Below, piece by piece: positions 1,275 through 35,414 of a stretch of DNA of 60,000 nt (its first letter is position 1; each line of letters opens with the position of its first letter). The position numbers and the translations under genes are program-made. Source of the stretch: Bolinopsis microptera (lineage: Eukaryota; Ctenophora; Tentaculata; Lobata; Bolinopsidae); NCBI RefSeq assembly GCF_026151205.1, contig NC_087081.1, forward strand, positions 6,569,246 to 6,629,245, given 5' to 3'. The notes below the pieces were generated by a model, which saw only the letters and a program-made list of their open reading frames with translations, was not told the origin of the DNA and made no database searches.

Positions 1275-2141
1275 CAGTCAAATCCGTCCTTATTTGAGCC
1301 TTTGTCGGACAAAATTCGCAACAAAGCGATTTTAACGGGATATGGTCGGGACAGGTCCCAGGAATCATTCCAGAAAAGTCCCAAAAAATCTGACTTGAGC
1401 AAAATCCACAATTACCACTTTTTTACCACCTTTTTACCACTTTGGTTTTCCGCAAATAAGTCACGTTCTGAATATCTTAGAAGATTCTAGTTTAAAGCAG
1501 TGTGTTTAGGAAACAAAGGAGAACAACTTTTTCTTTAACAACTTTTTCAAAAATAAATTATTTAATTAATTAATTAAATAATTAATAAATTTTCAAATAT
1601 TTAAAAAATATATTTTCATAAAAAATGTTCACAATTAAATTCCACGTATATTGAACTAATTCTTATAAAAAATTTGAAAATTTTCACTTTCAATATTTTG
1701 GACTTGTAAAATTTGTAAAGAATAACTAAACCACTATTTACCACTTTTTACCACATTGGATCTCCGCTAATAAAACGACTTCTGAATGTCGTAGAAGGTT
1801 CTAGATTGAACCGATGTGTTCAAAATATAAAAGAGAACAACTTTTATTCGCCAACCTTTGGATAAGATAATTAATCGATTAATTAATTAGATGATAAGTA
1901 AATTTGTAAAGAATAACTAAACCACTATTTACCACTTTTTACCACATTGGATCTCCGCTAATAAAACGACTTCTGAATGTCGTAGAAGGTTCTAGATTGA
2001 ACCGATGTGTTCAAAATATAAAAGAGAACAACTTTTATTCGCCAACCTTTGGATTAGATAATTAATCGATTAATTAATTAGATGATAAGTAAATTTTTAA
2101 AAATTTCAAAAATATAATTTTTACCAAAAATCTTTGCCGTG
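1275..2141 (+). repeat. Left inverted arm of element 1
   Basis: This pairs with 5820-6504 on the opposite strand. Conceptual translations of the first 200 bases of the two arms are nearly identical, which reflects DNA identity and not a gene. Subterminal TTTTTACCACC-type repeats occur at 1420-1440, 1731-1752 and 1921-1943. The arm is longer than its partner because of an internal 191-bp duplication. Confidence 0.85.
1712..2093 (+). repeat. 191-bp tandem duplication within the left arm
   Basis: Two almost identical copies with a 191-bp period. Each contains the ACCACTTTTTACCAC motif, a stretch ending AACTTTTATTCGCCAACC, and an ATTAATCGATTAATTAATT tract. The right arm of the element carries only one copy. 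Confidence 0.9.
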
Positions 2142-2389
2142 ACGTAAAACGTAAAATGAATTTACTTGAATAATAGAACAAACACCGTCACATAGATTAG
2201 ATAACAGATAAAAAGAGATGCAGATAAATGGAATAAACGGTAAAATATCCAAATTTGTACAATACTATTAATATTATATTATAGATAATAACTATTTACA
2301 CATCATCTCTCGACTTAGTGTTGTGCTTTTAAACTAGATTGTTAAACTGGTTCGTTTGGAAGCGTAAGCTTCAATATTTAATTTAAGGA

Positions 2390-2742
2390 ATGAATCCTGG
2401 CATCACCAACCAGCGATGGAAAGTGAAAGCCCTCCAAGAGTCTATCAGCTCCAACCCGATCCACACTCCTTTCTTCACCTTGACGGAAACCCACCTCATG
2501 TCGTATCACTTAGATGCGGAGGTTCACATCCCAGGTTATACCGGCTACCGAGCGGAGCGTACCAGTCGAGCTTGTGGCGGAGCCGCTACCTATCTCCACA
2601 ACTCCATCACAGCAGAAGAAACAAAGTCCTTCTCAAACTCCTACTGTGAACTCGTCGCCATCTACAGTAAAGAAGCTAACATCGTGATAGCGGGCATTTA
2701 CCGGCCCCCTTCAGCTCCTTTTGACAAGTTTGATGAATGCCT
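2390..2742 (+). pseudogene. Non-LTR retrotransposon endonuclease, N-terminal part
   Basis: The frame from the ATG at 2390 matches the apurinic-like (EEP) endonuclease of LINEs. Motifs in order are LTETHL with the catalytic Glu (about residue 32), GYTGYRAERTSRACGGAA, and IAGIYRPP (about residues 101-108). In an active LINE this domain nicks the target DNA for reverse transcription. The frame breaks at about 2742, where a different LINE fragment begins. The later endonuclease motifs GDFN and SDH are absent here, but an SDH block appears at 3951 in the same orientation. One LINE copy therefore appears to be split by a later insertion with loss of the middle of the domain. The copy is dead. Confidence 0.8.
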
Positions 2743-3950
2743 TTCAAATTAAAACGACATCTGCCCCTAAAAGTGCGACTACAACTCTACCATAGTTTTA
2801 TTGAGGCACATGTTAACTACTGCTCGTTAGCCTGGGGATTCGCGGCAAAATGTCACATTGAGACATTATTCCGTAGACAAAAGCAAGGAATGCGGATGGT
2901 TATGCCAGGATATGTAAATTACTTTTACAAAGACGGCAAATTGCCAGCTCACACCAGAGAAGCATTCTGCAAATTTGAGATTTTGACAATACACGGCATC
3001 ATCGTAAAGAATGCGCTTACATTAATGCACCGCATGAAGCACTTTCCTAACACAGTACATGTATCAATTAGAAATTTGTTTCCAGATAACATACCCACGC
3101 ATGGTTCAAATCATGAGAACAGTAGCGAATGGCTAGATACGTACAATAACCGATGTTTCAAAGCATCCATCTTTTTTAAAGGACCTTTACTAGCTCTAAC
3201 AGACACCAACAAGAACATCACGTCCCTACCTAGCTTATTTTCAATAAATATTTACAAATCGAACGCAAAACGCGTGCTTCTTGAGCAACAGTCAACACTA
3301 GCTAACTCAGAGGACAGCTGGCCAGCATTTCTGCTACACAACGTACCTGGTTTGAGGAAGTCCAATAGATGAGGGATGATTGAGTAATACAGCGACCAAT
3401 AATCGCTAAATCATGACATCATATCATAACATAACATAACATAGGACGACAGCAAACACACAATAAACGAGCAGTAATAAACAACGTTCGCTTAATGGAC
3501 TGACATATTTCAGCATATTTTTCACTGCCAAAGCGCTGATAACAGCAAGCCTTACCCCACTCCGCGCGGATTTTTAATGCACTAAATCTTAAAGATAATT
3601 CTCTCGATAAAATTTTCATCGTCACGCTTGAAAATTTCTAGAAATTAGAATAGCCGTATATTATAACAAACTATAGCAAGCAGAATTAAAAGATAAAAGG
3701 TTCTGGGACTTGAGTGGTACAAATAAAATGAAAGGCATGCTAATCATGCTCACGTACTGTAATGTGTCGAGAGTTTTTTTAATTTTTACTATTTGACAAA
3801 ATAATTGATCTTTTTAGTGTGAGTGTGATTTCAACTTTGAGTTTGAAAATATTTTGAAACGACTTTCGATATTATTGATTATTATATTTAATAAACTGTC
3901 TCAAAGCCCTTAGAGGTGGCTCTATACGGGTCTTTACAACAACAACCCTC
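2743..3950 (+). mobile_element. 5'-truncated LINE inserted in another LINE
   Basis: The coding part (2743-3372, about 210 codons) is the region C-terminal to the reverse transcriptase core: LPLKVRLQLYHSFIEAH, NYCSLAWGF, RRQKQGMRM, ending at a TGA at 3370. No catalytic FADD segment is present, so this is a 5'-truncated copy, typical of aborted target-primed reverse transcription. A non-coding stretch follows and ends in a short (AAC)n run at 3938-3950, a plausible 3' tail; a second candidate tail, (AACAT)n, lies at 3425-3443. The flanking endonuclease halves belong to a different LINE, so it is nested. Exact borders and the 3432-3940 portion are uncertain. Confidence 0.65.
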
Positions 3951-4924
3951 CAACAGTTCATCAAGACAGAGTTATCAGATCATGACATTGTGAGCTGCAC
4001 TCTCCTCAATCCTGAACTCCTCCTCCCCTCGCAGACTCCGGAACGGCCAGTCTTCACCCCCTCCTGCCTCCTTGATGACATTAACTTCAACTCAGCAGAC
4101 TGGGATGCCATTAATGTAGAACTGGTAGAAGTAGACTGGGCTTCTATCACTGACCCAAGCAACGATCAGGATACAGCTTGGACATTGTTTGAAGACAAGG
4201 TAGCGTTCATATGCTCTAAGCACGCTCCCTCGCACAGCAGAAACATCCAAGTGTCATCACAATCCTCCATTCCCAAGCCCAGAAGAGAACTTATTCGTAA
4301 GATGTAGCGACCATGATGCTCCTGTACAAGTCCTACGTACGATCTCATCTGGAATACTGCTGTCCTCTGTGGTCTCCTCACATGCAGTGCGAAATTATTA
4401 AACTCGAAGCAGTTCAACGATCCTTCACTGCTAAAATCCAGGGTCTTGGAAATCTCAACTACTGGGAGCGCCTCCGTCGCCTATCTATGTACTCCCTTCA
4501 AAGGCGTCGTGAGAGATACACTATCATCCTAGTTTGGAAGATCTATAACAATCTTACTCCAAACAGTATGAACATCAACTTCCGCGAGACCTCACGATAC
4601 GGAACTACGTGTATACGACCACTAGGGTCCTCCAAGTACACTAGTGTCAATAACCTGAGGTCAACTCCTTTGCCTCTAGAGCCTCTGCAGTCTGCACTGT
4701 ACAACGTGGTCCCTCCTAGCATCAAGTCCCTCCTAACCTTGACCGCTTTCAAACCTGCTCTTGATGCTTTCCTCAATGAATTCCCTGACACTCCACCATT
4801 CAACACCTGGGTACACTGGACAGAACAAGAACTCAATGCTGGAGTGGGCCGGTGGCATGTGCCTCTGACGCGCTACTACTTGGCGGTGGATATGCAAGAC
4901 ATTCTTGGCCTGGTAGCACTCTAG
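3951..4924 (+). pseudogene. Internally deleted CR1-like LINE: endonuclease end, linker and RT C-terminus
   Basis: Translation starts with LQQFIKTELSDHDIV. SDH carries the conserved catalytic His of the LINE endonuclease. A linker typical of these ORFs follows (DINFNSADWDAIN, PRRELIRKM), then a stop at 4305-4307. From 4313 a 203-codon frame gives the C-terminal domain: LYKSYVRSHLEYCCPLWSP, LEAVQRSFTAKI, YWERLRRLSMYSLQRRRERY, PFNTWVHWTEQEL, ending at 4924. The whole reverse transcriptase palm, including FADD, is missing between the two parts. A complete ORF of this type would be several hundred codons longer, so this copy is non-autonomous or dead. Its 3' region carries AAGTAAGTAAGTAATAATAA, a tail-like simple repeat. 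Confidence 0.85.
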
Positions 4925-5270
4925 CTCGGAACCCAACCCAAGTAAGTAAGTAATAATAAAGGGCCTTTAGTAGGAGTGCATACGCTAGGGTATTGTTTCT
5001 CCGTAGCTTTCAAACCTGCTCTTGATGCTTTCCTCAATGAATTCCCTGACACTCCACCATTCAACACCTGGGTACACTGGACAGAACAAGAACTCAATGC
5101 TGGAGTGGGCCGGTGGCACGTGCCTCTGACGCGCTACTACTTGGCGGTGGATATGCAAGACATTCTTGGCCTGGTAGCACTCTAGCTCGGAACCAAACCC
5201 AAGTAAGTAAGTAATAATAAAGGGCCTTTATTAGGAGTGCATACGCTAGGGTATTGTTTCTCCGTAGCTT
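4745..5270 (+). repeat. 261-bp tandem duplication of the LINE 3' end
   Basis: The last 60 codons of the LINE frame, its stop and its 3' region are repeated with a 261-bp period (copy starts 4745 and 5006). The second copy keeps the coding frame (about 5006-5185) and differs by only a few bases, so the duplication is recent relative to the LINE itself. Confidence 0.9.
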
Positions 5271-5632
5271 AGTGCACTAGATTCCCACTATAGGGATCGT
5301 GCACAAAGCCCAATTACAGTATCGTAGCACCCTGTCGCATGATTAGCGATTAGGTAATCATTGATTACCCAATCAATTTCGCTAACGAGATAAACGAATT
5401 GCTTGATGACTTCGTCATTTTCAGTCTGTTTCGCGCCAATATCTTTTCAGAATTCAGATCATATTCCGAATGTAATGGCCTATTGCAATGTGCAGTTAAC
5501 AGCATGTTCGCAAACACGATTATGTTGATTACAAGACTCATGTGTATTAACTCACGGCACCCCCACTCCCCCTAAACTTGGAGGATATTTTGATTTCTAA
5601 ATGGTATTTAACGACCACGTTCATTCAAAACA
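5271..5632. other. Element 1 interior, no gene
   Basis: AT-rich interior of the long-arm element between the LINE debris and the CXC fragment. It holds a short inverted repeat (GGTAATCA/TGATTACC, about 5350-5376). Nothing else is supported. Confidence 0.5.
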
Positions 5633-5760
5633 TCAGTTGCAACTGTTTAAAGTCAGGTTGTGGCAATGCTTGTTCATGCAGAAAAGCAGGAATACATTGT
5701 GGATCAACCTGCCTCAAATGTCAGGACAATTGCACCAATGTGCCAGCTGAGGACTCATAA
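5633..5760 (+). pseudogene. CXC (tesmin/TSO1-like) cysteine-rich C-terminal fragment
   Basis: After an acceptor-like AACATCAG (ending 5634) the frame reads a dense cysteine module: CNC, four residues, C, GNA, CSC, RKAGIHC, GSTC, LKC, QDNC, ending at a TAA at 5758-5760. The CXC spacing and the RKAG turn resemble the metal-binding tesmin/TSO1 CXC motif. That motif ends many multi-copy, probably transposon-borne, proteins in invertebrate genomes; this is recollection, not a search result. It lies about 60 bp inside the right inverted arm of element 1, pointing outward, so it may be the remnant C-terminus of that element's own protein. No upstream part of the protein is recognisable. Confidence 0.5.
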
Positions 5761-5819
5761 GTATCTAGTATATATTGGTTATATAAAGTGCTGCTTCGAT
5801 TTCCCAATCAATTTAATGA

Positions 5820-6504
5820 AAAATTGTTAATTATTCGTGTTATGCAATTTTAAAATATTTTGATCGAAAATAATTTTTATAATTTTCGAATATTTGTTAA
5901 ATAATTGATTAACTGATTAATTAATTATCTAATCCAAAGGTTGGCGAATAAAAGTTGTTCTCTCTTATGTTATTGACACATCGGTTCAATCTACAACCTT
6001 CTACGACATTCAGAAGTCGTTTTATTAGCGGAGATCCAATGTGGTAAAAAGTGGTTATTCTTTACAAATTTCGAAAATTTTACAAGTCAAAAATATTGAA
6101 AGTGAAAATTTTTAAAAGTTTTATGAAAATTAGTTCATTGTACGTGTAATGTAATTGTGAACATTTTTTATGAAAATATATTTTTTAAATATTTGAAAAT
6201 TTATTAATTGTTTAATTAATTAATTAAATAATTTATTTTTGAAAAAGTTGTTAAAGAAAAAGTTGTTCTCCTTTGTTTCCTAAACACACTGCTTTAAACT
6301 AGAATCTTCTAGGATATTCAGAACGTGACTTATTTGCGGAAAACCAAAGTGGTAAAAAGGTGGTAAAAAAGTGGTAATTGTGGATTTTGCTCAAGTCAGA
6401 TTTTTTGGGACTTTTCTGGAATGATTCCTGGGACCTGTCCCGACCATATCCCGTTAAAAACGCTTTGTTGCGAATTTTGTCCGACAAAAAGACGGATTTG
6501 ACTG
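5820..6504 (-). repeat. Right inverted arm of element 1
   Basis: Reverse-complement partner of 1275-2141. It has the same subterminal GTGGTAAAAAGG-type repeats at 6050 and 6350-6380, and a single copy of the 191-bp unit that is duplicated on the left. Confidence 0.85.
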
Positions 6505-6649
6505 TACTATGAATATAATTTTGGTTTATCTTTTGAGTCGAAAGTATAAAACGTCATCATCACGGAATTTTTTATTTCAAAAGTAGCCCGGTCAACTTAT
6601 AAACTCGCAGCTGAAAAATATTTACATTGGTGTATAATTTATCCAATAC

Positions 6650-6793
6650 CTTAAGTATTTCTCTGTCAACTCTCTTGCACCTTTTTGCCGAGTCTTGGAG
6701 ACGAGATCTAGAAGGAACATGCCGATCCTTTTTGGCGGACGCTTCGTTCAATTTTTGTTCGTATTTCGGTTCTTTGAAGTTGTTGAGCATCAT
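6650..6793 (-). CDS. Possible first coding exon, unknown protein
   Basis: I do not recognise the family. Two successive ATG codons open a 48-codon frame: MMLNNFKEPKYEQKL, then a Lys/Arg-rich stretch, ending CKRVDREILK. The frame is followed exactly at a codon boundary by AAG/GTATTG, a usable splice donor. The hydrophilic, basic, non-repetitive composition is more gene-like than the surrounding AT-rich DNA. Without splicing the frame would run 25 more codons to a stop at 6572. If the exon is real, its first intron contains element 1 just beyond 6512. No downstream partner exon was identified; the Ser/Pro segment at 1-894 does not join in phase by any acceptor I could see. Confidence 0.4.
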
Positions 6794-7413
6794 AATGAAA
6801 GCTGCAGTTTCACTTACAAAACTAACATTTGATGTAGCTTATTTTTTAAATGATTGTTACAAATCACAAATGAAAAGAACGAAAAATAAATAAACGAATT
6901 GCAGCAAAACCCGTAATTATGGCTGAAAGACAAGCTTAAGGAATCTCTTAAAATCCAAATGGTCAGACTTTATAGATGGCAGTGTTATTGATAAAAATAC
7001 AGATTGAAACCAATCTGTATGTCTTTAAACTTAGGTTACCTTTATAGACAAAAGCTTGATTGGAACCATGTTGATTTCCTAAGTTATGCGGGCTGCCAAA
7101 ACAAACTTTTAAAGTAGTGCCCCTTACAGATAATAACGATCAAGAATCGTGCAATCAGAACTAGTATACGTTATAAGGGGCTAGTGGAAGCCTATATAAC
7201 CTCATCAAGAACAAAAGTACCACCGCTAGTAGCTGGAACCAGACTGGAACTACTAGGCTGGAACCAACTCCTCTGGAACCAGACCAAATTAACATTATAA
7301 TGGCGAGCACCCTTGTAGTTATCTGAACTCCCGACTTAGTTGGCTCTAATCTCTCATGCTTAATACGATAACGGGTATCAAGAGAGATAACGGGACTCCA
7401 GAGTGCTGTATGT
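6794..7413. other. No gene seen
   Basis: Possible promoter side of the 6.7-kb exon. A short run of repeated CTGGAACCA words occurs at about 7232-7285. No convincing TATA box or coding frame was found. Confidence 0.4.
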
Positions 7414-7674
7414 GCTGTTCCCTTTTCCTAGTTATAATCTGCATATGAATAGAAGCTACTAAAAACTACAGGAGCCTTTACAGCTCTTGCAGCAGGCACG
7501 TAGCCAGGGGTAGGAGGGGGCAAGGGGTATAACTACGCCCCTGTTATAGGCTATATCTTCAATGATATAGCCTATAACCTTCCATGCTGGAGCGGTGCTA
7601 TTCAAAGCTCAGTTGTAGCTTCTTTTGTTCGTATGCAAATTGTAACTGGGAAAAGGGAACAGCGCTAAGCTCTC
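7414..7674. repeat. Fold-back repeat with a perfect inner hairpin
   Basis: About 60 bp at 7414-7470 is repeated in inverted orientation at 7611-7674 (shared words GCTGTTCCCTTTTCC and its complement). Between them a perfect 15-bp hairpin (GTTATAGGCTATATC and its complement, loop TTCAAT) sits at about 7545-7580. This could be a degenerate MITE. Confidence 0.7.
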
Positions 7675-7754
7675 TGCAGCTGTGCTCTTCAATGATAAAA
7701 TAACCGGAGCTCTTCCCTTTAAAACCCCACCCTTTAAAACTCCAGCAGAGTAGA

Positions 7755-9812
7755 GATAACGAGTAAGACTTCTCAATCCTGATCATGCTCTTGTGCAGTA
7801 TGCAGACTGCAGGAAAAGCGAGAGGATAATATAACGAGTAAGACTTCTCAACCCTGATCATGCTCTTGTGCACTATGCAGACTGCAGGAAAAGCGAGAGG
7901 ATAATATAACGAGTAATACTTCTCAACCCTGATCATGCTCTTGTGCACTATGCAGACTGCAGGAAAAGCGAGAGGATAATATAACGAGTAAGACTTCTCA
8001 ACCCTGATCATGCTCTTGTGCACTATGCAGACTGCAGGAAAAGCGAGAGGATAATATAACGAGTAAGACTTCTCAACCCTGATCATGCTCTTGTGCACTA
8101 TGCAGACTGCAGGAAAAGCGAGAGGATAATATAACGAGTAAGACTTCTCAACCCTAATCATGCTCTTGTGCACTATGCAGACTGCGGGAAAAGCGAGAGG
8201 ATAATATAACGAGTAAGACTTCTCAATCCTGATCATGCTCTTGTGCACTATGCAGACTGCAGGAAAAGCGAGAGGATAATATAACGAGTAAGACTTCTCA
8301 ATCCTGATCATGCTCTTGTGCACTATGCAGACTGCAGGAAAAGCGAGAGGATAATATAACGAGTAAGACTTCTCAACCCTGATCATGCTCTTGTGCACTA
8401 TAATGCAGACTGCAGGAAAAGCGAGAGGACAATATAACGAGTAAGACTTCTCAACCCTGATCATGCTCTTGTGCACTATGCAGACTGCAGGAAAAGCGAG
8501 AGGATAATATAACGAGTAAGACTTCTCAACCCTGATCATGCTCTTGTGCACTATAATGCAGACTGCAGGAAAAGCGAGAGGATAATATAACGAGTAAGAC
8601 TTCTCAATCCTGATCATGCTCTTGTGCACTATGCAGACTGCAGGAAAAGCGAGAGGATAATATAACGAGTAAGACTTCTCAACCCTGATCATGCTCTTGT
8701 GCACTATAATGCAGACTGCAGGAAAAGCGAGAGGATAATATAACGAGTAAGACTTCTCAATCCTGATCATGCTCTTGTGCACTATGCAGACTGCAGGAAA
8801 AGCGAGAGGATAATATAACGAGTAAGACTTCTCAATCCTGATCATGCTCTTGTGCACTATGCAGACTGCAGGAAAAGCGAGAGGATAATATAACGAGTAA
8901 GACTTCTCAACCCTGATCATGCTCTTGTGCACTATGCAGACTGCAGGAAAAGCGAGAGGATAATATAACGAGTAAGACTTCTCAACCCTGATCATGCTCT
9001 TGTGCACTATAATGCAGACTGCAGGAAAAGCGAGAGGATAATATAACGAGTAAGACTTCTCAACCCTGATCATGCTCTTGTGCACTATGCAGACTGCAGG
9101 AAAAGCGAGAGGATAATATAACGAGTAAGACTTCTCAACCCTGATCATGCTCTTGTGCACTATGCAGACTGCAGGAAAAGCGAGAGGATAATATAACGAG
9201 TAAGACTTCTCAACCCTGATCATGCTCTTGTGCACTAATGCAGACTGCAGGAAAAGCGAGAGGATAATATAACGAGTAAGACTTCTCAATCCTGATCATG
9301 CTCTTGTGCAGTATGCAGACTGCAGGAAAAGCGAGAGGATAATATAACGAGTAAGACTTCTCAACCCTGATCATGCTCTTGTGCACTATGCAGACTGCAG
9401 GAAAAGCGAGAGGATAATATAACGAGTAAGACTTCTCAACCCTGATCATGCTCTTGTGCACTATGCAGACTGCAGGAAAAGCGAGAGGATAATATAACGA
9501 GTAAGACTTCTCAACCCTGATCATGCTCTTGTGCACTATAATGCAGACTGCAGGAAAAGCGAGAGGATAATATAACGAGTAAGACTTCTCAATCCTGATC
9601 ATGCTCTTGTGCACTATGCAGACTGCAGGAAAAGCGAGAGGATAATATAACGAGTAAGACTTCTCAACCCTGATCATGCTCTTGTGCAATATGCAGACTG
9701 CAGGAAAAGCGAGAGGATAATATAACGAGTAAGACTTCTCAACCCTGATCATGCTCTTGTGCACTATGCAGACTGCAGGAAAAGCGAGAGGATAATATAA
9801 CGAGTAATACTT
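7755..9812. repeat. 75-bp satellite array, about 27 copies
   Basis: The unit contains ACGAGTAAGACTTCTCAA, TGATCATGCTCTTGTGCA and GCAGACTGCAGG. Most units are 75 bp. About five (near 8400, 8550, 8705, 9010, 9540) carry a 3-bp insertion, giving 78 bp. Both lengths are multiples of three, so the minus strand has an uninterrupted frame of 563 codons (7598-9289) made of a 25-residue repeat; one unit near 9237 has a 1-bp insertion that ends it. Variants AACCC/AATCC and the 3-bp insertion are linked in neighbouring units, suggesting higher-order amplification. I treat it as satellite DNA and not a gene: no start context, splice signals or non-repetitive domain supports coding. Confidence 0.95.
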
Positions 9813-11368: not shown

Positions 11369-11473
11369 GGCTTCACTCATAAGAAACCCAAAAAACCTCT
11401 CACAGTTACAAACTTATCCTCCGTCAACTACAACACTTTAACTAATAAATGTGGCAGAAATATAAGCGCCTAG
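11369..11473 (+). CDS. Possible terminal coding exon, unknown protein
   Basis: A strong 3' splice site (pyrimidine-rich TTTCTGTCACTTATTTCAG, ending 11368) is followed at once by a 34-codon open frame, GFTHKKPKKPLTVTNLSS to CGRNISA, then TAG at 11471-11473. The Lys/Pro-rich start and clean frame fit a last coding exon. AATAAA at about 11444 falls within the frame, and no clear polyadenylation signal follows closely. No upstream exon could be joined with confidence, so the gene is unidentified. It could be a chance acceptor. Confidence 0.33.
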   Translation, partial: GFTHKKPKKPLTVTNLSSVNYNTLTNKCGRNISA

Positions 11474-26240: not shown

Positions 26241-26248
26241 GCTTGTAG

Positions 26249-26330
26249 CAGTGGCATAATAAAGGGCAGATCCCACTATGCATGCGAGGGAGGAGGGGAC
26301 GGGGCGCTAAATGGTTACGTTACACCACTG
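26249..26330. mobile_element. Short hAT-like MITE fragment
   Basis: It begins CAGTGGCATAAT and ends GTTACACCACTG, an imperfect version of the CAGTGGCGTAAC ends at 59352-59637. Its interior has the same G-rich word (GGGGCGC). No matching 8-bp flanks, so the border is uncertain. Confidence 0.45.
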
Positions 26331-26357
26331 GTAGTACACTGCAGACTTTATTGAGGT

Positions 26358-26480
26358 AAGCTGAGCACGGTTCACGCACTGTAGTGCGACACGTACTCTA
26401 GTGCGACACGTACCCTAGTGCGAAACCTCCAAGATCGACACTGTCGCACTACAGTGCGCTACCTGGACTGTAGTGCGGCA
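26358..26480. repeat. TAGTGCG direct and inverted repeat cluster
   Basis: CACTGTAGTGCGACACGTAC recurs in shorter forms (CTAGTGCGACACGTAC, CTAGTGCGAAAC) and then inverted (GTCGCACTACAGTGCG), so the segment can form a cruciform. Confidence 0.65.
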
Positions 26481-26608
26481 CTTTACTTCAGTTAATAACT
26501 GAAGAACTGAGACAGTATAACTGACAGTTATACTGATATGAGTGAAATAACGCCATAGAGATCCAGCTGACGGTTGTTTTTTGAAAACTGCTGCTAATTA
26601 AACACTTA

Positions 26609-27503
26609 CCTTATCGGACCTTATTTGGACGGACATTACATGAACGGACATAATTGTGAACGGACATTAATATGAACGCTCGAAGGCATTCAAAACCATC
26701 AAAAATCCGAATTTTTTTAATTTTTGACGTTTTTTTAATTTCAGCAAATGATTTTTTAATCCATTTTTTATACAGTAAGTAAGAATAGCAGTCATTAAGC
26801 AGTAAAAATGTTAAAATATGTGTACATGATCAGTGTCTAATATCACATATCATCTTCATTAAATAGGTTTTCGTGCATGAAATAGTCCATGCTTAAACAA
26901 GCATCAGTGATTTCTAGCTTTGTGGAAACCTTTTTTATCAAACTACCCTGGTCCTGCATTTCAGTGTTAACTTTTACAAGCCATTCGGCGTGAAGTGGTT
27001 TTATCTTAGACAACTTAAGGTTAACCTTAACATCACGTGGAGCTTTCCTAGCACTGTTTCATTACCTCCCCTCAGTAATATGAACTATAAAAACGTCGGA
27101 CAATGTCCTTGGCAACACGATTTACCGTAATATCTAGAGGCTGAAACAAGTTTGTCATGTTGGCGGGGACTAGCTCATGAACTATGTTGTTGAGTGTCAT
27201 GATTTCGTTGACTTTTTCCGCCAAGTGACCCTTGAAAACATCATATACTATTACTAGTAGAGTTTTCTGTGCCTCCGGCAGACCAAGGAGAACCTTTCCG
27301 TCGTTAACTTACGGCACAATAAAGTTCTCATAGTTGTCATATTCTGGGTAAAAAGTTCGAAATGGAAAAATTTTTGAAAAAATTTCAACGGACTTTAACT
27401 TGGACGGACATTAATTGAACGGACTTTATTTGAACGGACATTAAGATGAACGCTAGGGCCTCCAGCGTTCAAGTAATGTCCGTCCAAATAAGGTCCGATA
27501 AGG
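26609..27503. mobile_element. pogo-type DNA transposon, dead, with TA target duplication
   Basis: The ends are CCTTATCGGACCTTATTTGG and its complement, bordered by TA at 26607-26608 and 27504-27505. A related uninterrupted copy of the flanking DNA at about 27662-27700 (AAACACTTATATGTTT) shows the empty site with a single TA exactly where the element sits here. Further inward, repeated ACGGACATTA words form subterminal repeats at both ends. The interior carries a defective DDE transposase on the minus strand. Confidence 0.88.
26843..27366 (-). pseudogene. DDE_1 (pogo/CENP-B-type) transposase C-terminus, disrupted
   Basis: Translation gives TFYPEYDNYENFIVP, a stop, then VNDGKVLLGLPEAQKTLL, VIVYDVFKGHLAEKV, VPANMTNLFQPLDITVN and RVAKDIVRRF. 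VYDVFKGH is the second catalytic Asp region and QPLDxxVN the conserved block near the third acidic residue of DDE_1 transposases. A stop at about 27070 and a frame change follow. The reading then resumes with VKVNLKLSKIKPLHAEWLVK to MHENLFNEDDM and a natural-looking stop at 26843. KPLHAxWL is typical of the family's C-terminus. The N-terminal HTH and first catalytic Asp are missing. At least one nonsense codon (27307 region) and one frameshift make it non-functional. Confidence 0.85.
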
Positions 27504-28341
27504 TATATGTTTTAAAGAACCCATCTCAAACCATCAATCTGAGACTCTGATATTTAAGATTTACAATTTACGGAGAATGATGAGTCGCTCTCGCCTACGT
27601 TGAAGAGACATCAGAGATAGATAGACCATGCGATACATAATGAACAGAATGTTCAACCACTAATTAAACACTTATATGTTTCAAAGAACCCATCTTCACG
27701 GATCTGATCCCTTCATACTAAACGTTATTTCTGGGTTGAGTCCAAAGTTTCATCAACACTTGACAGTTGACAGGGCTATGTTCTGATCACCCCACAGCCA
27801 AGTAATGGTATCGCTCATAATTGCGGAAGCACAGCAGAGAGTTCGTATTTTGAGGAGTGTATCCTCTGATTGGCGGCTTATCAGGGAAAGACTGCATGAA
27901 ATTTGTGACAAGCTTTGTGAGCTTATCTTTGAAGTGCTCCAGATCTTGAATGACATTCAGATGTTAGGGGATTTCATTCCACAAATTAGGTCCCTGAACT
28001 GCAAATGTGTTGTCAAACAAAGTGAGGTTTGCTGTTGGACTGGCTTTACGTTTCGATGAAATGACTGCCAGATTTCTAAATTAAGCCTTGGGTGCGAAAC
28101 AAATAAAACGTTCAGATCATTGCTGTTCTTTCCGGTTTAAGATTAACAATTATGGAAAATGATGAGTCGCTCTCGCCTTCGTTGAAGAAACATCTGTGAT
28201 AGATAGACCAGGCGATTCCAGTGGTGGAGATCACGCATTCCTGAGATTCTATTGACAAATTCGTTCTGGACACTCTCCAGTTCTTGGAGATCTCTGATTT
28301 TTGTGGGATGGCATAATGGACAGAATGTTCAACCACAAATG
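27504..28341 (-). pseudogene. CR1-like LINE C-terminal remnant with partial duplication
   Basis: On the minus strand from about 28330: CPLCHPTKIRDLQELESVQ, NEFVNRI, HHWNRLVYLSQMFLQRRRER, then after breaks GPNLWNEIP, FKDKLTKLV, SFPDKPPIRGYTPQNTNSLL and RYHYLAVG near 27780. This is the same domain as 4313-4924 (RRRERY, YLAVD) and 55166-55312 (PPIRGYTxQNSNSLL). The stretch 27571-27700 repeats the RRRER part and its flank, and that second copy supplies the empty site for the neighbouring pogo-type element. Several stops and frame changes are present. Confidence 0.8.
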
Positions 28342-28361
28342 ATGAAATCTCTATTCACACC

Positions 28362-28460
28362 TTTACGAAGCACAATCTTAAGAAATAAGAATGGTGATCA
28401 CTGCGGATATATTGCAGCCAAAATATATTTCAACATACAACACCTACATCGTTTTGTTTG
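28362..28460. repeat. Dispersed repeat, first copy
   Basis: The ordered words GCACAATCTTAAG, AGAATGGTGAT, ATTTCAACA, ACACCT and GATCG recur at 29782-29872 in the same orientation, 1.4 kb away. Confidence 0.5.
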
Positions 28461-29106
28461 ATCGAACTTACAACTTTGTGATGTGTGAAGATGTCCTAAT
28501 AGTAATATGTTTGATAAACCCTAAGAAAGAGCCCATGTCGTACGGGATGAAGATGAAGATGAACCCATTTAAAAGGTGTTGCAAAATAAGCAGCGCACAA
28601 ATGATCGTGATATATAATGACGGTTATACCTTCTCTTTTAAAATGGTTGCTGAAACTAATGTTGCCTGGCGAGATCTGTATCAAGCTTTTCTCTGGGGTA
28701 AAAACACCATTAATTCAAGAAGAGGTTGAGATTTATCATCCACCGACCTGTGTCTTTGTCTTTTTGATGACCGCATTGGCTGCTGTGGCCACCAATGATC
28801 TCATGGGTTAAGAAAAGGAACAACCCGCCGAAGGAACATAATAGGAACATAATAGGTAAAATGTAGCAGTCATGTAAATAGGAGTGTTTATTAAACAAAA
28901 ATTAGCGTCTATAATTTATATCACCAATTATAAGGGCCAATGAAGAGTCCAAGCATTGACCGGTCGTGGCAAAATGCATGCACGAAATTTGCCTAACAAC
29001 ATGATATGATCGATATCCGATACAATACCATTGTAAATAAGATACAGTTACGACGGAGATTACATGAAGTTATGTTACGACAAAAAATGTAGACCGTTTG
29101 AGGTAG
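28461..29106. other. No gene seen
   Basis: A 112-codon open frame (28391-28729) spans a repeat copy and has no recognisable motif; I do not call it. Two short direct repeats of AACATAATAGG occur near 28840. Confidence 0.4.
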
Positions 29107-29262
29107 AACTAACCCCCTATAGCTTGTATAATAGTATCTTAGTATAGAGCCTTGGCACAGAGTAGCTTAAGGTTACTGAAAAGGAGATAAGCATGTACCT
29201 AAGGCCATCCCATCACCAGGAGGTACCCATGCCCTTGTGTTTTGTATGTGTTGGAGGTATAG
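29107..29262 (+). repeat. Dispersed repeat, probable LINE 3' end
   Basis: Matches 59212-59343: shared words CTAACCCCC, GGCACAGAGT, GGTTACTGAAAAGGAGATAA and GGCCATCCC in the same order. At 59.3 kb the repeat ends in a (TTG)n run, which suggests a retroposon 3' terminus. Confidence 0.7.
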
Positions 29263-29305
29263 GAATTGTTGGAACATTGTTAAATGATACAGTAATTTAT
29301 TATTA

Positions 29306-29490
29306 CAGTAAAACCGCGGAGTTTGGGGGAAAGGAAACATTTGCAGTAAATCGGGATTCGCGGTAAATCGGGATTTTGTTTGTTTACATTATACATGTTT
29401 ATTACTTAGCCCTATTTAGGAAAGGAGATGGCCGCGGTATATCGGGGTTTGCAGTAAATCAGGGCGCGGTAATAAATTAAGGTTTTACTG
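29306..29490. mobile_element. pogo-like MITE, 185 bp
   Basis: The ends are CAGTAAAACC and GGTTTTACTG, flanked by TA on both sides (29304-29305, 29491-29492). The interior has inverted CGCGGTAAATCGGG-type words. Non-coding. Confidence 0.8.
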
Positions 29491-29781
29491 TAATAATAAA
29501 TTAAGGTTTTAACAACACTACTTTTAAAATAAATTTATGGTACTCAGCAGTGTTAAACCTAAAATCCTAAATATCTACTCGAATATTAGGTTTAGTTATA
29601 TGCTGCAGGGTACTACGAACCCTTTACAGACACTAGTTTCAAGCTTGTCGCCCTGATAACATAGCGAGTTCAAATTATTTGTTGTAGCAGTCTTGAAAGT
29701 ATTAAAGCTGCTACATTAATGTAACGATCTAGTCAGGATAAATAACTGAAAAATGTGTGGAATATCCTTCTTTTCTTTTTT

Positions 29782-29872
29782 ACATAGCACAATCTAAAGA
29801 ATGGTGATTATGCAGGCAACTAACAGATATTTCAACACCTGCAATATGCATTGGATTTTGATCGGATCGTTT
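29782..29872. repeat. Dispersed repeat, second copy
   Basis: Partner of 28362-28460. Confidence 0.5.
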
Positions 29873-30580
29873 GTGATTTAATACTTTGATAATAAGTTGA
29901 TGATATCTTGAGAATATGAGCAAATTAGACAATAGACCTATTTTCACCGTTCCAAGGCAATTTCTCCGCCGAACCTTATTTGTGCATTTTTTGGATTCGA
30001 CCATTTTGGTGAATAACTGGGAACCTTTTAAAATATTTAGCCGGATAAAAACCAATTAATACGTCTTTTTATATAATTTCATCTCAGAAAAATCACGAAT
30101 TCAGAAATTTTCTTCGGATATTTTTAAGCAGGAAGTGTTAATAAGAATCGTTAAAAGCAGACGTCAGACCATGAAAACTTCGGACTATGAAATCAGAGCA
30201 ATTTACTAAAAAGAGGTACAGTTTGTACACACCAGACATATTAGACTCATTTTATGAGTTCACGAAAGAATGGCTGTTCTTTAAGCAAATGCTGGAGGAG
30301 AGATGCGAGGAGGGTTTATTAAATGCAATCTCATATCATGACCGGTAAAGTCAGGACATGTTTAAAGTTGTTGTTGAAGCTGGCCAAAATAATATGTGAG
30401 ATTGGCATAAACTTATAAACATTGGTTTGCTCTGTACTTATATTGCGGCGATTTGAAAGGATTCGTCATTTATTGAAGGCTTTACTCCATTATACTGCTA
30501 TATTATTACCTGATCATTCATCAGCTGAGCATAAATGCTACCTCCAGGCTCAAACCAAGAAATTTGCAATAGCAAATCCA
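29873..30580. other. No gene seen
   Basis: AT-rich sequence with no recognised feature. Confidence 0.4.
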
Positions 30581-30740
30581 TCGGTCTACTTTGTTGATAC
30601 AACCCAAGGAAGCTCCTTCATCAAAGCTTACATCGGTCTACTTTGTTGCTACAACCCAAGGTAGCTCCTTCATCAAAGCTTACATCGGTCTACTTTGTTG
30701 ATACAACCCAAGGTAGCTCCTTCATCAAAGCTTACATCGG
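30581..30740. repeat. 52-bp tandem repeat, three copies
   Basis: The unit begins TCGGTCTACTTTGTTGATAC and ends CAAAGCTTACA. The period of 52 is not divisible by three, so overlapping frames are accidental. Confidence 0.95.
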
Positions 30741-30809
30741 GTGGGGTCGGAGAATTTGCGTTATACTCAGTGAAAAAAACGAGCATTGCAGGCAAAATAA
30801 AATGTTCTA

Positions 30810-31099
30810 CAGTCAAACCTCTTTATACCGGGTTTTACGAGGGAAACAAAAAGTGCACGGTATAGAAAGATTCCCATCCCCTGATCCCCTGTATCTGTAG
30901 CCCCTCAAATAACCTGTCAAGCGTCTCATATTGATATACCCCATTAGAATCACCTTTCTTGCACAAAACGAGCTAATTGCTGAAAGCTTGGGAGAAAAGA
31001 AGATGTCCGGTATAACTATATCGAGGTACCCAGTATAGAGGCACGGTATATCAAGGTACCTCATGGTATAGAGAGGCACGGAATAAAAAGGTTTGACTA
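30810..31099. mobile_element. pogo-like MITE, 290 bp
   Basis: Starts CAGTCAAACCTCTTTATACC and ends AAAAAGGTTTGACTA, with TA on both sides (30808-30809, 31100-31101). Inverted CGGTATAGA words are scattered inside. These ends resemble the CAGT-AACCTC-ATA pattern of pogo/Tigger-type Tc1/mariner elements. Confidence 0.78.
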
Positions 31100-31443
31100 T
31101 ACTAATATGCATAACTCGTGAGCATGTTACATGGTTGAGGAGTGTGACACTATAAAATTCCGAAACTTATACCAGAGACGAAAGTGTGACTCTTAATTTC
31201 GGAACTTTTACCAGAGCTAATTCTTCACAGTACCCCGATAAGGTGGTCCGCGCCTACTTGCCCTACTATTGACACGTCAACATATCCGTGAAGACTAGCG
31301 TAGTTCCCTTATGCGTTAACGCGAAACTTGACGGTATTGATTGGGGAGAAATTGGGAAAAATTACATGGCTATTAAAAAGTTAGGGAGGGGAAAGTTATC
31401 GTTAGAGCGAATAGAGTATAGACTCGCGGCATATTTCCATTTA

Positions 31444-32133
31444 TCTTAAACAATAAGATCAGAATGTGTGTTTGTCTGTGTGTGTGTCCGCGTGTAATTT
31501 CCGAGCGGCTTAATCAATAAAACGGTAAGAGTTACGGGGCTGGCTATTTCGGTATAGTGCCGACAAAACAATGAGGAAGTCAAATGGTAAAGGGTTTTTA
31601 AATCGGTCGGTGGTAAGTGGTTTAATTGATGGTTTTGTACCACAAATGTTACATAAAATGGCTTGAGCAGAACGGCAAGAGTTACGGGGCTGTAATGTTA
31701 TACCATAAGTTTATTAGGGGAGGGGGCACTGTTATTAGTGTTTGAGGTCTGTTTTAATAATATAACTGCAGAGAGAGAGAGTTCATACGACAATGTTATG
31801 CGTGTTTTCAAATGTAATAGGCGGGTGTGGTGCGGAGTTAGCAAGGGTTAATTTCTATAACGATTTAAATAGAAATGGAAAGCGGTTCAAGACGGGAGTG
31901 ATGAGGTGTAATAGTCGGTGTTCAGACCTTATGATCATGGAATGTGGTGCCTAATGATCTAATGGCTAATAATGACTTAATTATCCACGTGAAAGAACTG
32001 ATTATGAGATTATTGTTTAACTTTAAGATACTTATATTGGGTCACCTAATGCGGGTTTTGACTCAGCGGGTAATTACTCCTACCCTTTTTAAATGCGGCA
32101 GTGAAATCCCGGCCGAAGGCCGGGTTACACTAG
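31444..32133 (+). mobile_element. Non-autonomous Helitron/Helentron-like element
   Basis: The 3' end shows the Helitron signature: a perfect 7-bp stem CCCGGCC-GAA-GGCCGGG (32108-32124) followed six bases later by CTAG (32130-32133) and a flanking T. A fitting 5' end, TC after an A, lies at 31444, followed by the GT-rich tract (TGTGTGTTTGTCTGTG) common near Helitron 5' ends. The interior repeats CGGTAAGAGTTACGGGGCTG (31519 and 31673). No Rep/helicase coding is present. The 5' border is less certain than the 3' border. Confidence 0.7.
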
Positions 32134-32157
32134 TAATCTTATAATAGTCTCTCGAAG

Positions 32158-32340
32158 AAACAAAAAGACAGATAATCAGTTAGTTTCAGCTAATTGTAAC
32201 ACAAAAAGACAGATAATCAGTTAGTTTTAGCTAATTGTAACACAAAAAGACAGATATTCTGTTAGTTTTAGCTAATTGTAACACAAAAAGACAAATAATC
32301 TGTTAGTTTTAGCTAATTGTAACACAAAAAGTCAAATTTA
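32158..32340. repeat. 41-bp tandem repeat, about 4.4 copies
   Basis: The unit contains ACACAAAAAGACAGATAATC and GTTAGTTTTAGCTAATTGTA. It starts 24 bp beyond the Helitron-like 3' end. Confidence 0.92.
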
Positions 32341-32877
32341 GTTTTATATGGCCACGTCTCTATTCTCTAAGTAATAATAAAGGTCATGTTAATGCTCAAC
32401 ATCTCTTAGGTCACCATATCATGGGCATACACATTATGGTCACAGTGTAATCTTCGCAGTCAAATACATGAGACCTGCTGCAGCCGAACAAAGTAAAGTA
32501 CCGCAAAAACCACTAAATAACCTATGCTTAGCACAACTACTCAGTATAGTCACAAAATGAATATTTATACCAACACATTAATTGGTGGTTTGCAGGAGGC
32601 AGGTAGTTATAATTGAGCCGGGACACCACACACCGTGACGAGCATTCAGACCCATCAGCTTTGAGGTTTCAGCTATTACTGGCTGTTCAGATGAGTTCCC
32701 TGTCGGCTACTTTTAAAACATTGTAATTGAAGTTGGGAGGCTGAGATAGCACTAAAAGAACAGGAGGCTCTGGTTCAGTCAAGATGGCTTTGTGGGGAAC
32801 TTTGAGGGAGAGTCTTGGATCAGTGCCATAACCTTTTATGTCATAGGTTAGCACGTGTCATGCATGTTGCATTAGTA
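32341..32877. other. No gene seen
   Basis: Unique-looking sequence between the 41-bp array and element 2. No coding frame supported. Confidence 0.4.
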
Positions 32878-33585
32878 CAGACAGATCCGTCTGAAAAAAT
32901 CGATTTGCTGACACACGAAGCTTTCAGAGGATTTTTGACGTTTTTGAGTCCCATTAGGTGCCCTCTATGGCTGACCAACTTTTCCAAACTTTTCCACGTG
33001 TCTTAAGGCCACTTTTTGCCACTTTACCACTTTTTACCACCTTTCTTGTTTGTCGAATATCTTTAGTTGTGAACATCGTAAAAGGTTGCGAATCAATCGA
33101 GTGTGTTCATATTATCAGGAAGAAAAACTTTTGTTGAAACAATTTTTACGTCAGATAATAAGTTAATTGGATAATTATCAATTAACTAATTAGCAAAATT
33201 CTAAAAATTTTTTATTGGCTAAAAATGATCGGAATAGCTTAAAACACGGAGAAAAGTAGTTTTTAGAAAAAATTTGAAAATTTTTCACTTACATTTTTTT
33301 TTCGAGACTTTGAAAAATTTCGAAAATTCAAAATATTTTTTTCCGCCAAAAGTGATCAAATTGCATGAAAAGCGGAGAAAAATGATCTTCAAAAAGAATT
33401 TAGTCAATTTTTCGTTTCAAGAATACTAAGATCACCAATATTTGTAGTTGGAGTTCAGTAAATCTCGGCAGATTTTAGTAATAATCAGTAATTACTAACT
33501 CTAAGTGGAAAGGTCTGAAACTATAAGAGTTTCATAACTAATTACAATACAGCCTTATCGATTTTCACAGAAACTGCACCAATGG
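32878..33585 (+). repeat. Left inverted arm of element 2
   Basis: Pairs with 34670-35414. It contains the subterminal GCCACTTTACCAC and CCACTTTTTACCACC words at about 33017-33045. Confidence 0.88.
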
Positions 33586-33755
33586 TACGGTTCTATACCG
33601 TAAACTTCTCGTTTCTCCCATGAGAGGCCCGATATGGAGAGGTTTTACAGTGTATCACGAAAACGTTTACTTGGTCTCATGGCTCTTTGACAGCTCAAAG
33701 AAGGCAAGAAAAGACCAGAAAGCTTAGAATGTCAACTCGCAAGAGCGGGCTACCG

Positions 33756-33889
33756 GACAACTGAACCCAATTTAGACATTTAACCCTAACTCTAACCCTA
33801 ACCCTAACCCTAACCCTAACCCTAACCCTAACCCTAACCAATTAAGCTGATTGGTTAGTGGGAACTAGGTTTAATTGGGTTCAGTTGTC
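33756..33889. mobile_element. Small inverted-repeat element enclosing a telomeric array
   Basis: GACAACTGAACCCAATT at the left and AATTGGGTTCAGTTGTC at the right are exact complements. Between them lies the TAACCC array. At 134 bp it looks like a MITE that carries a microsatellite. No clear target duplication. Confidence 0.65.
33781..33840. repeat. Interstitial telomeric repeat (TAACCC)10
   Basis: Ten hexamers, eight perfect and two variant (TAACTC, TAACCA). The motif is the TTAGGG telomere sequence found across most animals. Confidence 0.98.
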
Positions 33890-34281
33890 AGTCTTCGATC
33901 TGTCCCACATTAATCCCGAGCTGATCATCATGGGCCCCGAATATCCTGCGGGAAGAACCTGTATTTTTACTTCACGACGCCCGGATTTCAAATCAACATC
34001 CTCAATAACATTAACAATCCTTCCTGATCAGGATCTGTCTCTATTAGCAATTTCCAAAATATCCTGACTCTCGTGGAACATTTCACTGAATTAATTATTA
34101 CCGGTTCTTTACTACCCCTTGCCCGACACTTTCCCTTGTTGATTTTACTTTTAGCCTACCCTGACATATGAGGGTGATTTGAGGTATCCCGCAAATGAAG
34201 TATGCAGTACAATACAAAACAGTCACAGTAGATGTTGGAAGGTGTATTTACACTTGCTTCCTGGACCTGGCTGACCTAACT
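33890..34281. other. Element 2 centre, no gene
   Basis: A 69-codon frame crosses from the MITE into this segment (INPELIIMGPEYPAGRTC). I regard it as repeat-derived. Nothing else recognised. Confidence 0.4.
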
Positions 34282-34325
34282 GTAAATGAGCCATGAGACC
34301 AAGTAGACATTTTCGTGATAAACTG

Positions 34326-34580
34326 TAAAACCTCTCTATACCGGGTTTCTCACGGTATAAAGCGTTTCATAAACCTCATGAAGAGCCATATAATATACAC
34401 GTACTGTGTCGTATTGTGATTGAATATAGCTCCATATGTATTACTATGTACATCACCCACCAACTTCGATATGAACAACTCGGTTTGATTGTTGAGGAAA
34501 AGAAGAGATCTGGTAATACAGGTAATACAGGTAGGCCGGTTTAGATTAGCACAATTGACGGTATAGAGAGGTTTTATTTA
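34326..34580. mobile_element. Diverged pogo-like MITE nested in element 2
   Basis: CTGTAAAACCTCTCTATACC at the left faces CGGTATAGAGAGGTTTTA at the right. Same end motif as 30810-31099. It occupies the extra space between the inner and outer inverted pairs on the right side. Confidence 0.6.
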
Positions 34581-34669
34581 TTACGAATGTGATTATCTTA
34601 ACCCCACTGATTCATCATTGAAATCAATAAAATGACAGTACAGCAGGCTATCGTTTCGATCTTGATTGT

Positions 34670-35414
34670 GCCATTCATGGTGCAGTTTCTGTGAAAATCG
34701 ATAAGGCTGTATTGTAATTAGTTATGAAACTCTTATATCGCGATCGTATGGTTAAACTTAACGTTTTTCAGTTTCAGACCTTTCCACTTAGAGTTAGTAA
34801 TTCCTGATTATTACTAAAATCTGCCGAGATTTACTGAACTCCAACTACAAATATTGGTGATTTAAGTATTCTTGAAACGAAAAATTGACTAAGTTCTTTT
34901 TGAAGATCATTTTTCTCCGCTTTTCATACAATTTGATCACTTTTGGCGGAAAAAAATATTTTGAATTTTCGAAATTTTTCAAAGTCTCGAAAAAAAAATG
35001 TAAGTGAAAAATTTTCAAATTTTTTCTAAAAACTACTTTTCTCCGTGTTTTAAGCTATTCCGATCATTTTTAGCCAATAAAAATTTTTTAGAATTTTGCT
35101 AATTAGTTAATTGATAATTATCCAATTAACTTATTATCTGACGTAAAAATTGTTTCAACAAAAGTTTTTCTTCCTGATAATATGAACACACTCGATTGAT
35201 TCGCAACCTTTTACGATGTTCACAACTAAAGATATTCGACAAACAAGAAAGGTGGTAAAAAGTGGTAAAGTGGCAAAAAGTGGCCTTAAGACACGTGGAA
35301 AAGTTTGGAAAAGTTGGTCAGCCATAGAGGGCACCTAATGGGACTCAAAAACGTCAAAAATCCTCTGAAAGCTTCGTGTGTCAGCAGATCGATTTTTTCA
35401 GACGGATCTGTCTG
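34670..35414 (-). repeat. Right inverted arm of element 2
   Basis: Reverse complement of 32878-33585, apart from a 37-bp segment (TATCGCGATCGTATGG region) absent from the left arm. Confidence 0.88.

What the first reader, a model, noticed from the sequence alone, without database searches (positions are those of the whole stretch)
1275..35414. A family of long-arm, TA-inserting transposons with shared subterminal TTTACCAC repeats
Elements at 1275-6504 and 32878-35414 share end sequence (CAGWCARATCCGTC), TA borders with the same outward TAGTAC extension, arms of 0.7-0.87 kb, and several subterminal ACCACTTTTTACCAC words at matching positions. Arm length far exceeds that of ordinary Tc1/mariner elements. 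The repeated subterminal words could be transposase binding sites. The family may be undescribed.
Basis: partly seen in the sequence, partly recalled or inferred. Interest (0 to 1): 0.72.

Follow-up and report, generated by a model that had tools for sequence, protein, structure and literature searches.

The report
Academ-type jumping genes, long inverted ends
Two repeats in this stretch are copies of cut-and-paste jumping genes, most likely of the Academ kind, whose tips occur hundreds of times in the host genome; they do not insert at TA as first thought but duplicate three bases of varying sequence, and their long ends carry evenly spaced words that may be docking sites for the moving enzyme.

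Summary
The two inverted-repeat elements are real; their limits are 1270-6509 (E1) and 32873-35419 (E2), five bases wider at each end than reported. Their tip occurs 403 times exactly in the 264.65-Mb host genome; the reversed control 0 times. They are not TA-inserting: the TA is the element's own first two bases. E1 and E2 are flanked by 3-bp target duplications (TGA, CAT), as are 24 of 26 other pairs, and one empty site matches 237 of 237 bases with a single TCA. E1 and E2 belong to two families with almost no shared interior but homologous arms. In 50 of 56 arms at least three RCCAC words lie 130-180 bp from the tip, mostly 10-11 bp apart. A 7.6-kb copy with E2-type tips encodes a transposase-like region and an XPG/FEN-type nuclease with a CXC-like tail. 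E1-family copies carry broken pieces of a related protein. A 3-bp duplication plus a nuclease fits the published description of AcademX (passage); no named Academ protein could be compared. Best filed as new families of a known kind; E1 and E2 are non-autonomous.

The parts
1270..6509 (.). E1: complete family-A element, 5,240 bp, ends TAGTACAGTCAAATCCGTC...GACGGATTTGACTGTACTA, non-autonomous
   Evidence: Sequence; same tips genome-wide; copy at C7:11727270-11731410 (L088) is 99.4-99.5% identical over pieces of 2,121, 846 and 645 bp
1267..1269 (.). left copy of 3-bp target duplication TGA
   Evidence: rule shown in 24 of 26 other pairs
6510..6512 (.). right copy of 3-bp target duplication TGA
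1270..2113 (+). E1 left arm (about 0.84 kb, includes a 191-bp tandem duplication at 1709-2101)
5873..6509 (-). E1 right arm (about 0.64 kb)
1414..1440 (+). spaced word cluster in E1 left arm: three ACCAC words at element positions 145, 156, 167
1730..1754 (+). second word cluster in E1 left arm (element positions 461, 471, 481); repeated at 1921-1945 by the 191-bp duplication
6349..6375 (-). spaced word cluster in E1 right arm (positions 135, 146, 157 from the right tip)
   Evidence: sequence, whose E1R row starts one base inside the tip
2737..3372 (+). 211-aa ORF: piece of a LINE inside E1; no DNA match in the loci fetched, including the E1-like copies L087 and L088
   Evidence: 51% identical over 210 aa to an ORF of the LINE in L001, whose neighbouring ORF matches RVT_1; DNA comparison
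4095..4925 (+). interior segment shared with other family-A copies (includes the 203-aa ORF 4313-4924, no Pfam match)
   Evidence: 99.4% identical in L088 over 831 bp; 98.4% over 628 bp in L087; Pfam
32873..35419 (.). E2: complete family-B element, 2,547 bp, ends TAGTACAGACAGATCCGTC...GACGGATCTGTCTGTACTA, non-autonomous
   Evidence: arms 82-83% identical over 428-454 alignment columns to the arms of the gene-bearing copy at C6:4303762-4311381
32870..32872 (.). left copy of 3-bp target duplication CAT
35420..35422 (.). right copy of 3-bp target duplication CAT
32873..33581 (+). E2 left arm (about 0.71 kb)
34678..35419 (-). E2 right arm (about 0.74 kb)
33008..33040 (+). spaced word cluster in E2 left arm: RCCAC at element positions 136, 146, 154, 164
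   Evidence: (row starts two bases inside the tip)
35252..35284 (-). same cluster in E2 right arm
33781..33839. (TAACCC)n telomere-like array in the E2 interior; also in L023, not in the other 22 elements fetched

Best explanation
E1 and E2 are non-autonomous copies of two related families of DNA transposons of the AcademX type (DDE-like transposase region plus XPG/FEN-type nuclease). The proposed working is as follows. The transposase, made by longer relatives such as the 7,620-bp copy at C6:4303762-4311381, recognises the TAGTACAG tip and probably an array of RCCAC words about 135-170 bp inside each arm. It cuts the element out and joins it to a staggered break that yields a 3-bp target duplication of varying sequence. 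Shown: complete ends, 3-bp duplication, one exact empty site, several hundred tips in the genome, homologous arms, and transposase-like/XPG/CXC coding regions inside copies with these tips. Inferred: word binding by the transposase, mobilisation in trans, cut-and-paste chemistry, and the role of the XPG domain in processing DNA flaps.
For: 403 exact tips against 0 control. 24 of 26 facing pairs have exactly 3-bp duplications, against 18 of 650 mismatched pairings. Exact empty site, 237/237 with a single TCA and no TA. Gene-bearing copy with arms at 98.6% (514 nt) and 96.6% (59 nt) and a TAC/TAC duplication. Family-A copies hold broken transposase pieces; a query joined from two of them has 115 matches genome-wide (several per copy, other families included; 83 of 402 candidates scored). 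C-terminal profile matches Exonuclease 1 (E 0.001 with 5 sequences; 1.5e-5 with 20) and the LIN-54 CXC domain (E 0.02). Predicted fold (mean pLDDT 76) matches FEN/EXO1 nucleases (Z 13.1, rmsd 3.6 over 238 residues). Conserved D columns and a D..(I/L)EQ motif in the upstream region (the motif is reached by 3 of 4 sequences). Published: AcademX makes 3- or 4-bp duplications, a difference from AcademH that the author links to the nuclease it encodes (PMC10045372, passage; that this nuclease is of XPG type is recalled).
Against: No named Academ sequence was available, so family membership rests on domain content and duplication length. The fold of the DDE-like region was not tested, and one search has other invariant acidic columns (for example E227), so the choice of catalytic residues is mine. 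2 of 26 pairs lack the 3-bp duplication. Two of the three targets with empty relatives show 4 or 6 extra bases beside the insertion. In one search an unrelated protein (inosine triphosphate pyrophosphatase, E 0.008) scores between EXO1 entries; Foldseek TM-scores are modest (0.35-0.39 by query for the first 15 rows). No intact full-length family-A transposase was found, and whether the gene in the C6 copy is intact (introns) or broken was not decided. E2's arms are only 82-83% identical to the C6 copy's arms, so its direct partner may be another copy.
Confidence: 0.88

Rival explanations
1. TA-inserting Tc1/mariner-like transposons with unusually long arms.
For: 403 of the 433 GTACAG... tips are preceded by TA, so copies look TA-bordered.
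Against: The exact empty site CTCTTCACTCTTC has no TA. The bases outside TAG...CTA are duplicated in 24 of 26 pairs and vary. The coding content found is XPG nuclease and CXC-like tail.
Confidence: 0.02
2. A DDE plus XPG transposon superfamily that resembles AcademX but is distinct from it.
For: Membership could not be tested against named Academ proteins; Pfam finds no transposase family in these ORFs.
Against: Both published marks of AcademX that could be checked, a nuclease and a 3-bp duplication, are present (PMC10045372 passage).
Confidence: 0.08
3. Inverted segmental duplications or palindromes without mobility.
For: Some fetched loci have extra or shifted inverted arms, for example L009 and L012, so rearrangement does occur.
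Against: Hundreds of dispersed tips, fixed ends, 3-bp duplications and an exact empty site.
Confidence: 0.01
4. The RCCAC words are not transposase sites but leftovers of shared ancestry, or sites for a host factor. (This bears on the words only and can hold together with the best explanation.)
For: The A and B arms are homologous over about 300 bp in general, so conservation of the words alone is not proof of selection. Most B/C arms have an 8-bp step in the array, which weakens the helical-turn reading.
Against: The only stretch that aligns between E1 arms and the gene-bearing copy at the settings used is positions 143-266, which starts in the cluster. Spacing near one helical turn recurs in both families although the exact positions differ.
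Confidence: 0.35

Closest known systems
AcademX lineage of the Academ superfamily (as described in PMC10045372, passage read; original paper PMC7165386 not held)
   Same: 3-bp target duplication; a DDE-like transposase region together with a nuclease
   Different: Terminal motifs, arm length and protein phylogeny could not be compared here; the regularly spaced RCCAC array and the 0.6-1.2 kb arms may or may not be usual for AcademX
AcademH lineage
   Same: Same superfamily by name
   Different: Published duplications of 9 or 10 bp and a helicase; here 3 bp, and no helicase family listed for three long relatives scanned
Tc1/mariner
   Same: Inverted ends with a TA at the border to the eye
   Different: The TA belongs to the element; the duplication is 3 bp and not TA
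PIF/Harbinger (features recalled)
   Same: 3-bp duplication
   Different: No TWA-type consensus in the duplications; XPG/CXC coding content

Membership tests
AcademX (Academ superfamily) | 3- or 4-bp target-site duplication | tested here: met
   24 of 26 facing pairs exactly 3 bp, control 18 of 650; one exact empty site; TGA and CAT in the window
AcademX (Academ superfamily) | nuclease encoded with the transposase (XPG type; the type is recalled) | tested here: met
   Profile matches Exonuclease 1 at 1.5e-5; fold match Z 13.1 to EXO1, the 50 rows shown being FEN/EXO1/XPG/GEN1-type or XRN nucleases and a repair complex; found in an element with these tips
AcademX (Academ superfamily) | DDE/D transposase domain | tested here: inconclusive
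   D13, D16 and D182 invariant in 4 of 4 and a D..(I/L)EQ motif in the 3 sequences that reach it; fold not predicted, no Pfam transposase family
AcademX (Academ superfamily) | sequence or tree relationship to named Academ transposases | not testable with these tools
   No Repbase or Dfam sequences held; PMC7165386 not held
AcademH | 9-10 bp duplication | tested here: not met
   3 bp
AcademH | helicase | tested here: inconclusive
   Pfam scan of L027, L028 and L029 (1342, 1550, 1438 aa) lists no helicase; the upstream frames of the C6 copy were not scanned
Tc1/mariner | TA target duplication | tested here: not met
   Empty site without TA
PIF/Harbinger | 3-bp duplication of TWA type (recalled) | tested here: not met
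   Duplications include AAG, GAC, CGT, AGC, TTG, GAA

The most novel reading that the evidence does not exclude
These AcademX-like elements use an array of RCCAC words spaced near one helical turn, about 135-170 bp inside each arm, as an end-assembly platform read by the CXC-like tail of the same protein that carries the DDE-like and XPG domains. Two families with otherwise different interiors keep the array because both depend on it. The XPG domain removes flaps at the donor or target, which could also explain the 4 or 6 extra bases seen beside two insertions.
Probability: 0.25. Interest if true: 0.55.

Novelty: new member of a known kind. Interest (0 to 1): 0.4.

Why it matters
Academ transposons are, in my judgement, among the less studied eukaryotic superfamilies. 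This genome holds hundreds of well-preserved tips, some nearly identical copies, a gene-bearing copy with matching ends, an exact empty site and a precise, testable subterminal word array. Together these give a usable starting point for asking how a DDE-plus-XPG transposase recognises its ends. The case also shows how a tip that begins TAG mimics TA insertion.

Tried and rejected
Tc1/mariner and TA insertion: rejected by the empty site and the varying three duplicated bases.

Transposase inside the longest copies with these tips: the 8.7-kb copy L001 and the 4.4-kb copy L013 hold reverse-transcriptase genes instead; L002, L003 and L018 gave no coding region that I recognised (L018 and the ORFs of L002 and L003 were not searched against any library).

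Empty sites for E1 and E2 themselves: joined flanks matched only their own flanks. Of 11 other joined flanks searched together (40 of 3,093 candidates scored, so absence is weak), three found empty relatives: one exact and two with 4 or 6 bases fewer than the collapsed junction. The other eight gave no junction-spanning match in that list. Of the empty copies listed for the two inexact cases I aligned 3 and 5.

Structure of the 564-aa ORF from a single sequence: useless (mean pLDDT 36.8); the 20-sequence alignment of its C-terminal 384 residues gave 76.2, with most of the CXC-like tail (333-357 and 360-384) under 50. Single-sequence PDB searches gave nothing for the C-terminal ORF and weak unrelated hits for the upstream ORF. 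Pfam on fragments and long ORFs gave no transposase family.

Termini of relatives: L028 and L029 elements have long arms (404 and 245 nt), but their target duplications could not be read with certainty. L027 showed no arms in the stretch held. L086 was fetched and not analysed.

Literature: searches. The Academ primary paper PMC7165386 is not held. PMC12221973 was looked at for a possible link of transposon ends to chromatin loops in comb jellies; the 12 of 17 passages shown do not mention Academ.
Full report
What is there. The window lies at C10:6569246-6629245 of a 264,652,675-base genome in 232 contigs. Two inverted-repeat elements are confirmed. Their true limits are 1270-6509 (E1) and 32873-35419 (E2): both begin TAGTACAG and end CTGTACTA, with TGA repeated outside E1 and CAT outside E2. 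The tip TAGTACAGWCARATCCGTC occurs 403 times exactly (210 forward, 193 reverse), with 0 for the reversed control. A looser pattern, with two free letters and one mismatch allowed, gives 640. Without the first two bases the tip occurs 433 times, so 403 of 433 (93%) carry the TA.

Target duplication. One search lists 100 of 640 tips with their outer ten bases. All 26 facing pairs less than 10 kb apart in that list were taken; 24 of 26 show exactly three repeated bases next to TAG...CTA, against 18 of 650 when left and right flanks of different elements are paired. The repeated triplets vary (TTA, CTA, AAG, GAC, CGT, ATA, TCA, AGC and others). The two failures are C1:11174321 and C4:6946162. Joined flanks of 11 elements other than E1 and E2 (ten of the 26, and the C6 copy below) were searched together. 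One (C2:6722351) matches an empty relative at C2:6699165-6699401 over 237 of 237 bases, with a single TCA and no TA at the junction. Two others lie in repeats whose empty copies are 4 or 6 bases shorter than the collapsed junction (5 and 3 copies aligned): the occupied copies carry extra bases, which could be older excision scars or variation of the target copy. E1 and E2 themselves gave no empty relative.

Two families. Twenty-three elements with these tips were fetched and compared with E1 and E2 by blastn at E 1e-10. Copies with tip TCAAATCC (family A, with E1) and copies with tip ACAGATCC or ACAAATCC (family B/C, with E2) share nothing at those settings, apart from about 1% in L018. The first 400 bases of the arms of E1 and E2, tips excluded, are nevertheless homologous: local scores 158 and 159 against maxima of 90 and 85 in 300 dinucleotide shuffles each. 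Arms elsewhere reach about 1.2 kb (L022, L023). Some copies are recent: window 1275-1460 is matched at 100% in four places, E1 itself being one (40 of 266 candidates scored), and the copy L088 on C7 is 99.4-99.5% identical to E1 over pieces of 2,121, 846 and 645 bp and has its own 3-bp duplication TTT.

Spaced words. Of 56 arms examined (both arms of E1, E2, the C6 copy, the 23 elements, L087 and L088; related copies, not independent), 50 have at least three RCCAC words in one orientation at 130-180 bp from the tip; about 0.04 per 50 bp are expected from base composition. The opposite orientation occurs 5 times in the first 300 bp of all 56 arms. Family B/C mostly has the words at 136, 146, 154 and 164 (the C6 copy at 136, 146, 156, 166). 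Family A mostly has 135, 146, 157 in one arm and 145, 156, 167 in the other, and many arms have a second cluster near 445-495. Spacing is mostly 10-11 bp, close to one helical turn, but most B/C arms have an 8-bp middle step and one A arm has 13 and 12. The six arms with fewer than three words are one each of L009, L012, L013, L014, L018 and L019. Between E1 arms and the C6 copy the only stretch that aligns (blastn, E 1e-5) is 143-266 at 74-75%, which begins within the array.

Transposase. Family-A interiors carry broken protein pieces on the minus strand (L006, L016, L017). A 520-aa query made by joining such pieces from L016 and L006 gave 115 matches, often several per copy and with other families among them, including a divergent pair on C6. 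That locus is a 7,620-bp element, C6:4303762-4311381, with E2-type tips, arms of about 0.6 kb (514 nt at 98.6%, 59 nt at 96.6%) and TAC on both sides. It holds open frames of 471 aa and 564 aa plus shorter upstream frames; whether these are exons or a broken gene was not decided. A second pair of frames, identical in protein, lies at C6:4427720-4431421; its ends were not read. E2's arms are 82-83% identical to the C6 copy's arms over 428-454 alignment columns. Further relatives in the genome include uninterrupted frames of 1342, 1550 and 1438 aa.

Domains. The C-terminal part, aligned from 5 and then 20 sequences, matches Exonuclease 1 in the PDB at E 0.001 and 1.5e-5, and the LIN-54 CXC domain at E about 0.02; an unrelated pyrophosphatase also appears at E 0.008. 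L029's tail passes Pfam's cut-off for the TCR/CXC domain (24.6 against 23.5 bits); other members fall below it. The predicted model (mean pLDDT 76.2) matches T5 flap endonuclease first and EXO1 among the first 15 rows in Foldseek, with modest TM-scores, and EXO1 at Z 13.1, rmsd 3.6 over 238 residues in the second look. Upstream, an alignment of four members keeps D13, D16 and D182 in all four and a D..(I/L)EQ motif in the three that reach it. That is what a DDE transposase would show, but other residues are invariant too and the fold was not tested.

Name. A passage of PMC10045372 states that AcademX generates 3- or 4-bp duplications and AcademH 9 or 10, and links this to the nuclease and helicase they encode. 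That the AcademX nuclease is of XPG type is recalled. The features here fit AcademX. PMC10294476 (passages) treats Academ as a DDE/D superfamily found in bivalves. The primary Academ paper is not held, and no Academ protein was available for comparison, so membership is by features only.

How it probably works. Shown: tips, 3-bp duplication, a clean insertion, spread, and gene content. Inferred: the protein binds tip and word array, cuts and inserts with a 3-bp stagger, and moves non-autonomous copies such as E1 and E2 in trans; the XPG domain trims flaps; the CXC-like tail is a candidate reader of the words. E1 carries a LINE piece, 51% identical in protein to an ORF of the LINE in L001, with no DNA match in L087 or L088; another interior segment is shared with those two copies, so it was probably acquired before they spread. 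E2 and L023 carry a telomere-like array.

Host. C13 is 16.35 Mb and C14 0.198 Mb, which suggests thirteen chromosome-sized contigs. This and the total size resemble the comb jelly Bolinopsis microptera (13 chromosome-scale scaffolds, about 254 Mbp by k-mers; PMC10232365, passages). This is a guess and nothing rests on it.

Verdict. A well-preserved pair of families of a known kind. The spaced word array is the part worth an experiment.

Noticed in passing
L001:6739-8241 (minus), inside the element at C1:25299422: Beside the reverse-transcriptase and endonuclease ORFs of the LINE in this copy lies an ORF matching 2OG-Fe(II) oxygenase (AlkB-like, E 1.2e-17), followed by a stretch that looks SGNH-hydrolase-like by eye; unusual if it is the LINE's first ORF.
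   Followed up: partly
C2:17925810 and C2:15818883 insertions (flanks L073/L074, L075/L076): Occupied sites carry 4 (TTGA) or 6 extra bases compared with empty relatives: possible scars of earlier insertion and excision at the same target.
   Followed up: partly
L027, L028, L029 and many other places in G000: The genome holds many divergent relatives of the same protein (79 and 84 matches); two of the three long ones examined have long arms (404 and 245 nt).
   Followed up: partly
window 33781-33839; L023 1659-1724: Telomere-like (TAACCC)n array inside one subgroup of family B elements.
   Followed up: no
window 7756-9812: 75-bp tandem array of about 27 copies overlapping long open frames on the minus strand.
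   Followed up: no
window 48631-48994, 52023-52260, 56362-56871: Three further hairpin-like inverted repeats with arms of 173, 98 and 154 nt; possibly other small transposons, not studied.
   Followed up: no
G000 contigs C1-C14: Contig sizes (C13 16.35 Mb, C14 0.198 Mb) and 264.65 Mb in all suggest a lobate comb jelly as host; a guess.
   Followed up: partly
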